Shown here: piece by piece, positions 711 to 53,160 of the stretch
Layout of the letters: each line of letters starts with the position of its first letter
Position numbering within the stretch: position 1 is the stretch's first letter
Origin: Geomicrobium halophilum
GTDB taxonomy: Bacteria > Bacillota > Bacilli > Bacillales > Marinococcaceae
Assembly (NCBI RefSeq): GCF_014207655.1
Contig: NZ_JACHHJ010000004.1
Span: 124,001 to 188,000 of the forward strand
DNA: 64,000 nt
Reading direction: 5' to 3'
Translations under genes and position numbers: made by a program
The notes under the pieces: generated by a model
Seen by the model: only the letters and a program-made list of their open reading frames with translations
Database searches by the model: none
Told to the model about the DNA's origin: nothing

Positions 711-719
711 GGTATGCGG

Positions 720-833
720 CGCGGCGGTCGGTTTCGTTGCACCAGTTTCTTTTTTCGATGCTTTGATGAGATCATTCAGCGCTTCTGGTCTTTTTTCGGC
801 GCTTGGACAGGTTAATTCGGCGTTTTGCCTCGG
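720..833. repeat. Short cluster of degenerate TTCGGCGC motifs
   Basis: The spacer between bshB2 and the convergent thioredoxin-like gene holds spaced variants of one motif: ATTCAGCGCTTC, TTCGGCGCTTGG, ATTCGGCGTTTTG and TTATTCAGTG. The same motif recurs at 22.3-22.6 kb and 53.0-53.2 kb, always between genes. No coding potential is evident here. Confidence 0.5.
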
Positions 834-1385
834 TTATTCAGTGTTCGCTTGTTCCAGCGCTATTATAATGCTTTCATAAACGTCATTCCAGACGTTGTCA
901 TCTTCGCGATAAGTTTTCGTGATCGTTACAAGGGTTTCTTTCCACTTTTCTTCATAATTGGGGGCGTCCTTGGACGGCAAGTCAGCAAAAAGCTTATCGA
1001 CCCTCGCTTGTAATTCGGGAGCGCGCGGTCCCCAGTTTGCTACTTCATTTCCATTTTCATCAATAAAAATAAAAACTGGGATCGAGCGGGATTTTCCATT
1101 CGTTAAATATTGATCCATCAGTTCCAAGTTACTGTCTCTAAGCAAGAACGATGTCTGAATATCAGTCTGCTCTGCGATCCGAAGCAAAATGGGAACATTC
1201 AACATAGCATCTCCGCACCAATCTTCTGTGAGGACGATGACGCGCAATGGTTTCTTTTCTAGCCTGTTGTCTGCCGAAATGCTAAAGTTTTCATAAATAT
1301 GCTGAAGATTTTCCTTGTGTTCGGTCATATTCTCGATATATCTTTTTGCGCTCATGCCCTTCGAATACCATTCATTTAATTCCAT
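834..1385 (-). CDS. Thioredoxin-like protein with WCGD motif
   Basis: A 183-residue cytoplasmic protein of the thioredoxin fold. The segment LTEDWCGDAMLNVP (from residue 52) takes the place of the usual CXXC loop, leaving a single cysteine. RSIPVFIF near residue 100 carries the cis-proline expected opposite the active site. This pattern fits the Thioredoxin_9-type family, which is poorly characterised. Lack of the second cysteine argues against a classical dithiol reductase and for monothiol or bacillithiol-linked chemistry (inference). The start ATG overlaps the last 10 bases of the upstream patatin gene, so the two are probably translationally coupled. Confidence 0.75.
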   Translation of the reverse strand: MELNEWYSKGMSAKRYIENMTEHKENLQHIYENFSISADNRLEKKPLRVIVLTEDWCGDAMLNVPILLRIAEQTDIQTSFLLRDSNLELMDQYLTNGKSRSIPVFIFIDENGNEVANWGPRAPELQARVDKLFADLPSKDAPNYEEKWKETLVTITKTYREDDNVWNDVYESIIIALEQANTE

Positions 1386-20830: not shown

Positions 20831-22225
20831 TCACCTACGCATCAACTGCGTTACACTCTCCACATGCGCCGTCTGCGGGAACATATCGACGGGCTGCACT
20901 TCTTTTACTTCATAGCCGCCTTCAGAGAGAATGCGAAGATCACGGGCAAGGGTAGCCGGGTTGCAAGAGACATAAACGATGCGCTCGGGCTTCATCTCAA
21001 TCATCGTTTGCAGCAGCTTTTCATCGCAGCCTTTACGTGGTGGATCAACGACGATAACGTCAGCTTGAACTTCGGCAAAGGCTCTCCACCAAGGTACGAC
21101 TTCTTCTGCTTTGCCTACGGAAAACTCTACATTTGATATACGATTGAGTTTCGCGTTCTTGCGCGCATCACGAATCGCTTCCCCTGATACTTCAACACCA
21201 TAGACCTTCTTTGCTTTTTCAGCTAAAAAAAGTGAAATTGAACCAATGCCGCAATAAGCATCAATCACCGTTTCCTGGCCGCGTAAATCAGCGTATTCGA
21301 GGGCCTTTTCATAAAGAGCTTCCGTTTGTACAGGGTTCACTTGAAAAAATGAAAGCGGAGAAAGGGCGAAACGTAGTTTTCCAACTTGTTCCTCAATGTA
21401 TGATTCTCCCCAGAGGATTTCTGTACGTTTTCCGAAAATGACATTCGTTTTTTTATCATTCATGTTTTGGACAATGGAGTGAATGCCTGAGACTTCCCGG
21501 CGGATATCCTCTACAATTGCATCCCTTTTCGGTAATGTCTCACCATTTGTAACGAGCATAACCATGGTTTCACCGCTCAGCCGCCCGTTACGAGCTACGA
21601 TGTGGCGGATAACTCCTTTTCCGCTTTCTTCATCATAAGGTTGAATGTTGTATCGTTTTAATATGGTTTTGACGACCTGAATGGCTGCATCGTTCTGATC
21701 ACCTTGAATTAGACAATGATCCATGTCAACGATGTGATGCGATTGTTTTGCATAAAATCCGGCAATGAGTTCCCCGTTTCGCTCGGCCACAGGTACTTGT
21801 GCTTTATTGCGATACGCCCACGGTTCCTCCATCCCCATCGTTTTATGAACAGGAATGTCATCGCGTCCCATGTACTTGTGGAGAGCATTGACCACTTGCT
21901 CGCGTTTCAATGAAAGCTGAGCTTTTTGATCCATATGTTGAAGCTGACAGCCGCCACACCAGTGATAAATCGGACAAGGCGGGTCGACACGTTGATCACT
22001 CGTCGTATGGCGCTTCATTAAGCGCCCAAATCCAAAACTTTTCCCTACTTTTACAACTTTAATCTCTGCTTCTTCCCCCGGAAGGCTGTCCGGGACGAAT
22101 ATCGGATAGCCGTCAACCTTAGCCACTCCAGCTCCTTCATGAGTGAGATCTTCAAAGGTGACGTTGAGGAACTCATTTTTTTGTACCGGTATATTCTTGT
22201 TTATACGTTTATTAGACATAGACAC
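20831..22225 (-). CDS. rlmCD: 23S rRNA (uracil-5-)-methyltransferase RlmCD
   Basis: A 464-residue TrmA/RumA-type RNA m5U methyltransferase. An N-terminal TRAM domain (about 17-75) binds RNA. The iron-sulfur cysteines lie in CPIYHWCGGCQLQH near residue 84. The SAM site is DAYCGIGSISLFLAEKA near residue 323, and the catalytic cysteine is in VYVSCNPATLARD near residue 418. In B. subtilis the homologue YefA (RlmCD) modifies U747 and U1939 of 23S rRNA and is encoded near dgkB and gatB, as here. The start has two possible ATGs two codons apart. Confidence 0.9.
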   Translation of the reverse strand: MSMSNKRINKNIPVQKNEFLNVTFEDLTHEGAGVAKVDGYPIFVPDSLPGEEAEIKVVKVGKSFGFGRLMKRHTTSDQRVDPPCPIYHWCGGCQLQHMDQKAQLSLKREQVVNALHKYMGRDDIPVHKTMGMEEPWAYRNKAQVPVAERNGELIAGFYAKQSHHIVDMDHCLIQGDQNDAAIQVVKTILKRYNIQPYDEESGKGVIRHIVARNGRLSGETMVMLVTNGETLPKRDAIVEDIRREVSGIHSIVQNMNDKKTNVIFGKRTEILWGESYIEEQVGKLRFALSPLSFFQVNPVQTEALYEKALEYADLRGQETVIDAYCGIGSISLFLAEKAKKVYGVEVSGEAIRDARKNAKLNRISNVEFSVGKAEEVVPWWRAFAEVQADVIVVDPPRKGCDEKLLQTMIEMKPERIVYVSCNPATLARDLRILSEGGYEVKEVQPVDMFPQTAHVESVTQLMRR

Positions 22226-22331
22226 GTTCCTTTTCGTGGTTCTTATCTACACAATTGTTGTTGCGGCAAGGACTGGAAACTGAAAGCGCTTGCCGGTAAA
22301 ATGCCCGGAAGTATCACTAGGCCCACGCATT

Positions 22332-22556
22332 TCGACGAATGACCGTCGGGATTCGGCGCACCGGGCGATTTATTCGGCACGGGCGCTTTTCAGCCATCGG
22401 ACGCAGGCACAGGATTATAGCGCACCAGCAAGGATTTCAGCGCTTCATCCGCGGAATACGGCGGAACACGGAATAATTCGGCGCTTCATCCCGAGAGAAT
22501 TCAGCGTACCAGTTCTTTATTCGGCGCACAAGCAAATCATTTAGCGCACCTCTCCA
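22332..22556. repeat. Array of degenerate TTCGGCGCACC-type repeats
   Basis: The 334-base gap between rlmCD and glxK holds roughly ten spaced variants of one motif, including ATTCGGCGCACCGG, TTATTCGGCACGGG, TATAGCGCACCAGCAAGG, TTTCAGCGCTTCATCC, AATTCGGCGCTTCATCC, AATTCAGCGTACCAG, TTATTCGGCGCACAAG and TTTAGCGCACC. Spacing is about 20-25 bases. There are no identical repeats with unique spacers, so it is not a CRISPR array. Related clusters occur at 0.7 and 53.0 kb. Confidence 0.65.
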
Positions 22557-22559
22557 TTT

Positions 22560-23705
22560 TTACGGCCGCGCTTCGTCGTGCCACATGACCTTGGCAATGT
22601 TTCGTGCTACCTGTGTTAAGTAAGCGGCCCCGTTCTCCATAGCGTCCTTCACATCTATCGCACCGGGAACCAGGGTGAAAGCTGCATCAATACCGTGTTC
22701 ATGTACACGCTCGTACTCATCGCCCAATTGTCCGCAAATAGCAATCACGAACGTGTCATTTTCTTTTGCTGCTTTTGCCACGCCGACCGGAGTTTTGCCG
22801 TACACCGACTGCCCGTCGATTTTTCCCTCACCGGTAATGACAACATCCGCTCCCTGGGCACGCCTGCGAAAATCAGTTTCTTCCAGAACAAGGTCGATCC
22901 CAGGCTTTAGTTCAGCATCTAAATAAGCGAGCAATCCTGCTCCTAGACCGCCTGCAGCCCCTGCACCGGCTGTATCTTTTACATCTTTGCCCGTTGCCTC
23001 TACCGATAATTCGTGAAAATGAGCCAGAGCGTCATCCAGCCGTTTGACCATTGACTCATCGGCCCCTTTTTGCGGACCGTAAATCGCGGTAGCCCCACGC
23101 TCTCCGAGCAAAGGATTTGTTACATCACAAGCAACCACAATTTCCGTCATCTTCAGGCGAGGATCCAAGTCTACAACATTAATAGCAGAAAGTGCTTCCA
23201 GTCCAAGCCCTCCTCTTGCTATCGCTTCTCCTTGGTCATTTAACAAACGAGCACCAAGCGCTTCGATCATTCCCGCTCCTCCATCATTCGTGGCGCTTCC
23301 CCCAATACCGAGAATGATTTTTTGAGCGCCTTGATCCAGAGCTGCTTTTATCATCTCTCCTGTTCCATACGTTGACGCCTCTCCAACCTTGCGGGCATCT
23401 TCAGATACATGATCAAGCCCCGAAGCCTGTGCCATATCCATAATTGCTATTTGTCCATCTGCTGATAGAGCGTAGGTGGCCTCTACTGGGTGGGCATTCG
23501 GACCTTCGACGCGGACGGTCTGCTGCTTCCCATCGAAGTTCGCTGTCAACGCTTCCATCGTTCCTTCACCGCCATCACCCATTGGAATTAAATCATATTT
23601 ATGTTCTTTTCCTACCTCTAGAAAGCCTTCTCGTATAGCTTCTGCTGCTTCTTTCGCGCTCATACTTTCTTTAAAGGAATCCGGTGCGATTATGATTTTC
23701 GACAT
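22560..23705 (-). CDS. glxK: Glycerate kinase
   Basis: A 381-residue glycerate kinase of the GarK/GlxK family, with the N-terminal signature IIAPDSFKESMSAKEAAEAI (residue 5 on), PMGDGGEGTMEAL near 41, ILGIGGSATNDGGAGMIEALG near 130 and TGEGKIDGQSVYGKTPVGVA near 291. It phosphorylates D-glycerate, to 2- or 3-phosphoglycerate depending on subclass, and acts in the cytoplasm. It lies downstream of a small membrane-protein gene, three bases away. It could link to glycolate-type metabolism through the GlcD-like oxidase at 3.3 kb (inference). Confidence 0.92.
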   Translation of the reverse strand: MSKIIIAPDSFKESMSAKEAAEAIREGFLEVGKEHKYDLIPMGDGGEGTMEALTANFDGKQQTVRVEGPNAHPVEATYALSADGQIAIMDMAQASGLDHVSEDARKVGEASTYGTGEMIKAALDQGAQKIILGIGGSATNDGGAGMIEALGARLLNDQGEAIARGGLGLEALSAINVVDLDPRLKMTEIVVACDVTNPLLGERGATAIYGPQKGADESMVKRLDDALAHFHELSVEATGKDVKDTAGAGAAGGLGAGLLAYLDAELKPGIDLVLEETDFRRRAQGADVVITGEGKIDGQSVYGKTPVGVAKAAKENDTFVIAICGQLGDEYERVHEHGIDAAFTLVPGAIDVKDAMENGAAYLTQVARNIAKVMWHDEARP

Positions 23706-52946: not shown

Positions 52947-52977
52947 GCAGCCTTCTAAGGGGAAGGTTGCTTTTTTT
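52947..52977 (+). terminator. Terminator of the ABC exporter
   Basis: GCAGCCTTC and GAAGGTTGC form a 9-bp stem (one G-U pair) followed by a run of seven T, right after the permease stop. Confidence 0.88.
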
Positions 52978-53011
52978 ATCCTCTTCACAGTGATTGGGGT
53001 GACGTATTACA

Positions 53012-53160
53012 AATTCGGCGTGGGGGAAGGGTTTTTCGGCGGTTCAGCACGTTTATTCGGCGCACAACCTCGAGAATTCGGCGCGGGGGAAGGGTTTTTC
53101 GGCGCAGCAACACATTTATTCGGCGCACAACCTCGAGGATTCGGCGCGGAAGAAGGCTTC
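53012..53160. repeat. 63-bp tandem repeat built of TTCGGCGC motifs
   Basis: Units start at 53012, 53075 and 53138 (the last partial), each with AATTCGGCGNGGGGGAAGGG, then TTTTTCGGCG, CAGCA, TTATTCGGCGCACAACC and TCGAG. Because 63 is divisible by three, a frame stays open across it and gives a repetitive GEGFFG/LFGAQPR pattern; this is not a supported gene. Same motif family as at 0.7 and 22.4 kb. Confidence 0.75.

What the first reader, a model, noticed from the sequence alone, without database searches (positions are those of the whole stretch)
22332..22556. Array of about ten degenerate TTCGGCGC(A/T) motifs between rlmCD and glxK
The gap is almost wholly built of spaced variants of ATTCGGCGCACC. 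Related clusters occur at 720-833 and 53012-53160. The motif family differs from CRISPR, REP and common IS ends. It might be a protein-binding array, a recombination hotspot product or a slippage-expanded element specific to this lineage.
Basis: seen in the sequence. Interest (0 to 1): 0.6.

Follow-up and report, generated by a model that had tools for sequence, protein, structure and literature searches.

The report
Two-helical-turn DNA repeat arrays between genes
The gap holds one worn copy of a genome-wide family of DNA arrays, in which a short conserved word recurs every 20-21 bases (two turns of the double helix) between genes; similar arrays turn up patchily in related bacteria and look like landing strips for a DNA-binding protein that has not been identified.

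Summary
22330-22547 has 8 scored cores of (A/T)TTC(G/A)GCG in 11 unit positions 20-21 bp apart; 714-844 and 53013-53147 are sister arrays. In the stretches read, the genome has 72 arrays with 390 cores. All 63 exact core pairs are 19-21 bp apart although 16-24 was allowed. The core is constrained, the spacer free: related units in different arrays differ at 6.4% of core and 25% of spacer sites. Arrays lie between genes, prefer convergent to divergent gaps (15:3 against 5:19), ignore transcription direction (20:20) and show no RNA fold. Many copies lie in two dispersed, possibly MITE-like elements; the window array in neither. A related architecture (TTYNGCGC at 19-21 bp) is abundant in 19 of 299 genomes of the order, own included, and falls from 590 to 8 matches in those 19 at 23-25 bp. 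Best explanation: phased binding sites for an unidentified chromosomal protein, spread by dispersed carriers and unit duplication. The protein is inferred, not shown. Nearest known kind: staphylococcal STAR elements; these are a variant, not members.

The parts
22330..22547 (+). degenerate 20-21-bp-phased array, 8 scored cores in 11 unit positions, all cores in one orientation; not grouped with the dispersed elements
714..844 (+). sister array, 6 scored cores, between convergent genes (its end overlaps the 3' end of the 834-1385 ORF by 11 bp)
53013..53147 (+). sister array, 7 cores at exact 21-bp steps; a 63-bp (3-unit) tandem repeat of S1-type units
52947..52978 (+). hairpin plus T-run after the upstream gene's stop codon, just before the 53013 array; read by eye as an intrinsic terminator
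   Evidence: sequence; no terminator scan was run
20831..22225 (-). 23S rRNA (uracil-C5)-methyltransferase gene, RlmD/RlmCD type (TIGR00479, 552 bits)
22560..23705 (-). glycerate kinase gene (TIGR00045, 496 bits); the array lies beyond its stop codon

Best explanation
The gap is one worn member of a genome-wide family of helically phased direct-repeat arrays. Each 20-21-bp unit has a constrained, non-palindromic 8-bp core ((A/T)TTC(G/A)GCG) and a free 12-13-bp spacer, so successive cores face the same side of the double helix. Shown: phasing, core constraint, location between genes, preference for convergent over divergent gaps, indifference to transcription direction, two related groups of array-bearing sequence at many unrelated places, duplication in whole units. 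Inferred: each core binds one molecule of a chromosomally encoded DNA-binding protein that assembles in register along the array, giving a local nucleoprotein patch at gene 3' ends that may insulate neighbouring genes or manage supercoiling. Also inferred: MITE-like carriers copy arrays to new sites, unequal exchange or slippage adds and removes whole units, and selection on the core keeps binding while spacers drift.
For: All 63 exact pairs lie 19-21 bp apart although the pattern allowed 16-24; nearest-core spacings without a fixed grid are 20 or 21 in 201 of 254, overlapping loci counted more than once. In 72 arrays, 12 of 330 unit positions lack a scored core. Information in 379 units sits in the core: 1.1-1.9 bits per position against 0.04-0.44 in the spacer. 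Core against spacer difference: related units in different arrays 854/13258 against 6612/26153; within arrays 8/1001 against 192/1998; units with unrelated spacers still share the core (0.065); of 21 phases the 7-base block on the core is the least diverged (0.057). S1 and S2 alignments: core 0.128 and 0.096 against spacer 0.284 and 0.310; 0 of 110 and 0 of 101 circular shifts as low. Gaps with arrays 15 convergent, 32 tandem, 3 divergent; without 5, 27, 19; Fisher convergent against divergent p = 1.1e-4. In 40 tandem gaps 20 arrays follow and 20 oppose transcription. 14 of 14 RNA folds (7 stretches of 6 arrays, both strands) have z from -1.35 to +1.24. At 19-21 bp the order-wide pattern is strong in 19 of 299 genomes; at 23-25 bp none of 299 reaches 7.
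Against: No protein has been identified; there are no binding, expression or phenotype data. Units were found by their core, which biases core divergence downwards; the 12-of-330 figure limits this but was itself obtained with a rule that chained cores only at 19-23 bp or multiples. Preference for convergent gaps also follows if insertions are merely tolerated there. Presence is patchy within genera, so arrays may be dispensable. In stretches of G159, G184, G198 and Bacillus sp. BA3 the rest of the unit is nearly as conserved as the core (20-27 bits over 16 positions), as plain tandem repeats would be. The reversed control pattern is itself enriched in 5 of 299 genomes, so this core is not the only word that forms such arrays.
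Confidence: 0.42

Rival explanations
1. Selfish or mutational amplification: the core is kept because the copying machinery (a transposase, nuclease, recombinase or replication-restart factor) needs it, not because the host uses it. Arrays spread in mobile carriers and grow by whole units.
For: Duplications come in whole units of 21, 42 and 63 bp. Distribution is patchy within genera.
Against: The two groups have unrelated ends yet share the core. 9 of 72 arrays, the window's 22330 and 714 arrays among them, link to no other array. Both ends were found together in only 2 of 17 S1 rows and 6 of 19 S2 rows, and no consistent target duplication was seen, so mobility itself is not proved.
Confidence: 0.3
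2. Neutral tandem repeats: slippage products that drift without function.
For: They lie between genes, and some arrays are nearly pure tandem repeats (C5:34518, C4:101769); in some other genomes the whole unit is conserved.
Against: In this genome core and spacer diverge at very different rates, and unrelated spacers share one core and one period.
Confidence: 0.13
3. A transcribed RNA element (terminator, rut-like site, processing site or structured RNA).
For: Few arrays in divergent gaps, many beyond gene 3' ends.
Against: Orientation is 20:20 relative to transcription; 14 of 14 folds lie within z -1.35 to +1.24; no Rfam family in the window at gathering threshold.
Confidence: 0.08
4. Recognition words of another kind: DNA-uptake or Chi-like signals, plasmid iterons, or a short-peptide-coding repeat.
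For: 21 bp keeps frame, and arrays often give open frames; iterons recur at similar spacing (recalled).
Against: 20-bp steps break frame (69 of 318). The window array is flanked by an rRNA methyltransferase and a glycerate kinase gene, with no replication gene. Uptake words would be scattered singly through genes (recalled).
Confidence: 0.05

Closest known systems
STAR elements (Staphylococcus aureus repeat)
   Same: Interspersed intergenic direct repeats: short conserved motif, spacers that differ between lineages, loci that expand and contract, numbers not following species relationships, different loci in each species, function unknown in 2012 (passages of PMC3532100 read).
   Different: STAR motif is 14 bp, T(G/A/T)TGTTG(G/T)GGCCC(C/A), with at least 40 bp between motifs (PMC3532100); here an 8-bp core at a 20-21-bp period, with related cores in many genera.
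REP / BIME elements
   Same: Between genes, mostly in tandem and convergent gaps; a DNA role as gyrase target at ORF 3' ends is discussed (passages of PMC3733652 read).
   Different: REPs are palindromic; these cores are non-palindromic, all in one direction within an array, and show no RNA fold.
MITEs such as bcr1 of Bacillus cereus (named in a passage of PMC3733652)
   Same: S1 and S2 groups are short, apparently non-coding, dispersed, and have consensus ends that are inverted repeats.
   Different: The array is not the carrier: two unrelated carriers and ungrouped arrays share one core. Target duplications were not established.
BOX elements of Streptococcus pneumoniae (recalled, no call)
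   Same: Dispersed intergenic element with a variable number of internal modules.
   Different: Module sequence and unit length differ as recalled; not compared here.

Membership tests
STAR elements | 14-bp motif T(G/A/T)TGTTG(G/T)GGCCC(C/A) | tested here: not met
   Unit logo of 379 units is (A/T)TTC(G/A)GCG; the genome was not searched for the STAR word.
STAR elements | motifs separated by at least 40 bp | tested here: not met
   63 of 63 exact pairs are 19-21 bp apart where 16-24 was allowed.
STAR elements | intergenic | tested here: met
   ORFs overlapping arrays look spurious, over-extended, or overlap only an end (judged by eye, own genome only)
STAR elements | numbers do not follow species relationships | tested here: met
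   In genus g47, 2 of 8 genomes have 11 matches each, the others 0-1.
REP / BIME | palindromic hairpin unit | tested here: not met
   14 of 14 RNA folds z -1.35 to +1.24; the core is not a palindrome.
REP / BIME | gyrase, IHF or Pol I binding (gyrase from PMC3733652, the others recalled) | not testable with these tools
   needs binding experiments
MITE (S1 and S2 groups) | terminal inverted repeats | tested here: inconclusive
   consensus ends match 22 of 29 and 13 of 15, but both ends were found together in only 2 of 17 S1 rows and 6 of 19 S2 rows
MITE (S1 and S2 groups) | target-site duplication | tested here: inconclusive
   no consistent duplication seen in the printed flanks
MITE (window array 22330-22547) | terminal inverted repeats | tested here: not met
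   no S1 or S2 end found by the fuzzy search, and no blastn partner among the arrays; ends of another family were not sought
CRISPR | repeats of roughly 23-47 bp with unique spacers of similar length (recalled) | tested here: not met
   8-bp core, 12-13-bp spacers that duplicate in pairs; cas genes were not sought
Plasmid iterons | next to a replication initiator gene (recalled) | tested here: not met
   window array flanked by rRNA methyltransferase and glycerate kinase genes; flanks of the other arrays outside the window were not annotated

The most novel reading that the evidence does not exclude
An order-wide class of two-helical-turn 'landing strips' in these bacteria: arrays of TTYNGCGC-like cores at 20-21 bp, re-evolved or re-spread in scattered species with species-specific spacers, recognised by a conserved but unidentified nucleoid protein that polymerises in phase and marks or insulates gene 3' ends.
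Probability: 0.3. Interest if true: 0.8.

Novelty: new variant of a known kind. Interest (0 to 1): 0.6.

Why it matters
STAR elements, the nearest kind, had no known function in the paper I saw passages of (PMC3532100, 2012). These arrays add handles for the question: a measured constraint on the core, a two-turn period that recurs in many genera with an off-phase control, and array-rich species beside array-poor congeners. That makes 'does a protein read these repeats?' directly testable by bait pull-down and by presence/absence comparison, and could reveal a sequence-specific chromosome-organising protein.

Tried and rejected
RNA element: disfavoured by orientation 20:20, 14 of 14 ordinary folds and no Rfam hit in the window.

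Coding repeat: disfavoured. ORFs of 100 aa or more that overlap arrays looked spurious, or were upstream extensions of a gene past a likelier internal start, or overlapped an array end only; that judgement is by eye.

Phage or plasmid origin: a three-core pattern in viral contigs gave 0 and one S1 copy against plasmids gave 0. S2 and the window array were not tried there, and the phage collection was not searched.

I looked at 7 stretches. In counts over their records: Pseudogracilibacillus auburnensis 37 against 1 control; Bacillus sp. BA3 3 against 2, all 3 in one array; three non-Bacillota MAGs (L053, L060, L101) 16/2, 9/4 and 6/0, not studied further.

A less strict gap count gave 18 convergent, 40 tandem, 7 divergent array gaps, against 15, 32, 3 with a 150-bp minimum.

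RemA was considered from memory as a candidate binder; the listing showed nothing usable and I opened none of its papers. Paper searches aimed at these repeats were made; no listed title or abstract describes them. One search listed 10 of 106 papers and one search listed 12 of 19, and the library is open-licence PMC only, so this does not show that none exists. One search covered a guessed genus name (Salicibibacter); no call names the organism, and 'Bacillales-like' is my inference.

Contig order relative to origin and terminus could not be set; the best DnaA match lies on C3.

Full report
OBSERVATION. The gap between an RlmD/RlmCD-type gene (20831-22225, minus) and a glycerate kinase gene (22560-23705, minus) contains 8 scored cores in 11 unit positions at 22330-22547. 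Within the window alone the single word is only weakly enriched (9 against 4.54 expected, 6 of 100 shuffles as high). Across the genome (window = G000:C4:124001-188000) the evidence is strong: 288 against 53 single words, 63 against 0 exact pairs, 251 against 10 pairs with up to two mismatches.

ANATOMY. All 63 exact pairs are 19-21 bp apart although the pattern allowed 16-24. I built a sequence-only model from 14 three-unit stretches; it gives 135 matches at E <= 0.1 in the genome, with 150 of 537 first-look candidates scored. I then read 57 stretches round places plus the window. These hold 72 arrays and 390 cores. The 318 steps are 227 of 21 bp, 69 of 20, 9 of 19, 2 of 22, 2 of 23 and 9 multiples; the chaining rule admitted only 19-23 bp and multiples, so one search is the fairer test of the period. 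12 of 330 unit positions lack a scored core. The logo of 379 units has 1.1-1.9 bits at each position of (A/T)TTC(G/A)GCG and 0.04-0.44 in the spacer. The set is not exhaustive.

CONSTRAINT. For units in different arrays with related spacers (identity 0.6-1.0; 1894 pairs), cores differ at 6.4% and spacers at 25.3%. For units in one array (143 pairs) it is 0.8% and 9.6%. For units with unrelated spacers (18119 pairs) cores still differ at only 6.5%. Scanning a 7-base block over the 21 phases, the block on the core is the least diverged. In alignments of the two dispersed groups the core is 2.2 and 3.2 times less diverged than the spacer, and no circular shift of the labels does as well (some rows may not be true copies). 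Two cautions: pairs share units and are not independent, and units were recognised by their core.

CARRIERS. Blastn links 63 of 72 arrays (with flanks) into one component and leaves 9 alone, the 22330 and 714 arrays among them. From the linked arrays I picked two groups by eye: S1 (20 sequences), with ends beginning CTAGTGC, and S2 (25 sequences), with ends GGGGCTGTCCCAAAA and TTTTTGAGACATCCCC. Consensus ends match as inverted repeats at 22 of 29 and 13 of 15, but both ends were found together in only 2 of 17 S1 rows and 6 of 19 S2 rows, and no consistent target duplication was seen. They may be MITEs; that is not proved. The S2-type end word occurs 12 times in the genome against 1 control, once as a 151-bp element without a core by eye (L229). 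The 53013 array is an S1-type array with a 63-bp tandem repeat. Of 8 spacers of the 22330 array, 2 resemble spacers elsewhere at p <= 0.01.

CONTEXT. Among gaps of at least 150 bp between ORFs of at least 100 aa in the stretches read, array gaps are 15 convergent, 32 tandem, 3 divergent; the others are 5, 27, 19 (convergent against divergent p = 1.1e-4; convergent against the rest p = 0.013). A less strict count gives 18, 40, 7. ORF calls are greedy and starts approximate. In the 40 tandem gaps 20 arrays follow and 20 oppose transcription. This argues for a DNA-level rather than an RNA-level role, and 14 folds agree. Arrays are uneven: no model match lies between 0.70 and 1.52 Mb of contig C1, and density runs from 0.83 per 100 kb on C3 (which carries the best DnaA match) to 4.7 on C4 and C5.

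BEYOND THIS GENOME. The exact two-core pattern is in 2 of 41 genomes (own and G019), and the own-genome model finds nothing in 28 other family members at E <= 0.001. With the looser pattern TTYNGCGC at 19-21 bp, 106 of 299 genomes of the order have a match. In 23 the count is at least 7, and in 19 of those, own included, it is also at least 5 times the reversed control, for example 105/0, 95/0, 82/0 (own), 79/0, 37/0, 33/0. The 19 fall in 14 of 47 family codes. Results against: the reversed control reaches 7 in 8 genomes, and in 5 of them it exceeds the forward count at least five-fold (G198 52 against 4), so other words make such arrays too. At 23-25 bp, the one off-phase period tried, no genome reaches 7 with either pattern, and the 19 together fall from 590 matches to 8. 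So the period is the common property, and the TTYNGCGC core is frequent but not universal. I read 20 stretches from 10 genomes, 8 of the 19 plus G019 and G198. Cores and spacers vary between species, though ATTCAGCGC recurs in G019 and P. auburnensis. In 11 of 11 groups with enough units the commonest step is 20 or 21, but the stretches were chosen by a 19-21-bp pattern. In some of them (G159, G184, G198, Bacillus sp. BA3) the whole unit is conserved, so core constraint is shown for this genome only. Whether arrays elsewhere are intergenic was not tested with ORF calls. Presence is patchy within genera: in genus g47, 2 of 8 genomes have 11 matches each and the others 0-1.

MECHANISM. A non-palindromic core repeated every two helical turns, in one direction, with free spacers, is what sites for a protein that assembles side by side on one face of DNA would look like. 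I put 0.42 on that reading and 0.30 on the rival that the core serves the copying machinery. The window's own array is worn (3 of 11 positions without a scored core) and may no longer work.

COMPARISON. STAR elements are the nearest kind (passages of PMC3532100): same architecture and patchiness, different motif and spacing, so these are not members. REPs share the gap preference (passages of PMC3733652) but are palindromic.

VERDICT. Real, genome-wide and constrained; a new variant of interspersed intergenic direct repeats, with a phased class of wider reach behind it. I saw no description of it in the rows listed (open-licence library, two of these lists cut).

Noticed in passing
G000:C1:0.70-1.52 Mb: No array-model match in about 0.8 Mb, while C4 and C5 carry 4.7 arrays per 100 kb; cause unknown.
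   Followed up: no
L229 (G000:C1:1381432-1381582): A 151-bp element with GGGGCTGTC-type inverted ends and no array core by eye, i.e. an array-free element with S2-like ends.
   Followed up: partly
G000:C1:1-180 and G000:C5:1-180: Both contigs begin with near-identical DNA and an array (by eye); assembly may have broken at this repeat.
   Followed up: no
G198 (L226, L227): 52 matches of the reversed control pattern against 4 forward; L226 also shows a repeat of roughly 50-60 bp of another kind.
   Followed up: no
L101 (Phycisphaerales MAG), L053 (Deltaproteobacteria MAG), L060 (Eremiobacteria MAG): 20-21-bp arrays with TTCRGCGC words in records from unrelated phyla.
   Followed up: partly
G159 (L214, L215): Arrays in which the spacer stretch AATCTCTCGG looks at least as conserved as the core.
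   Followed up: partly
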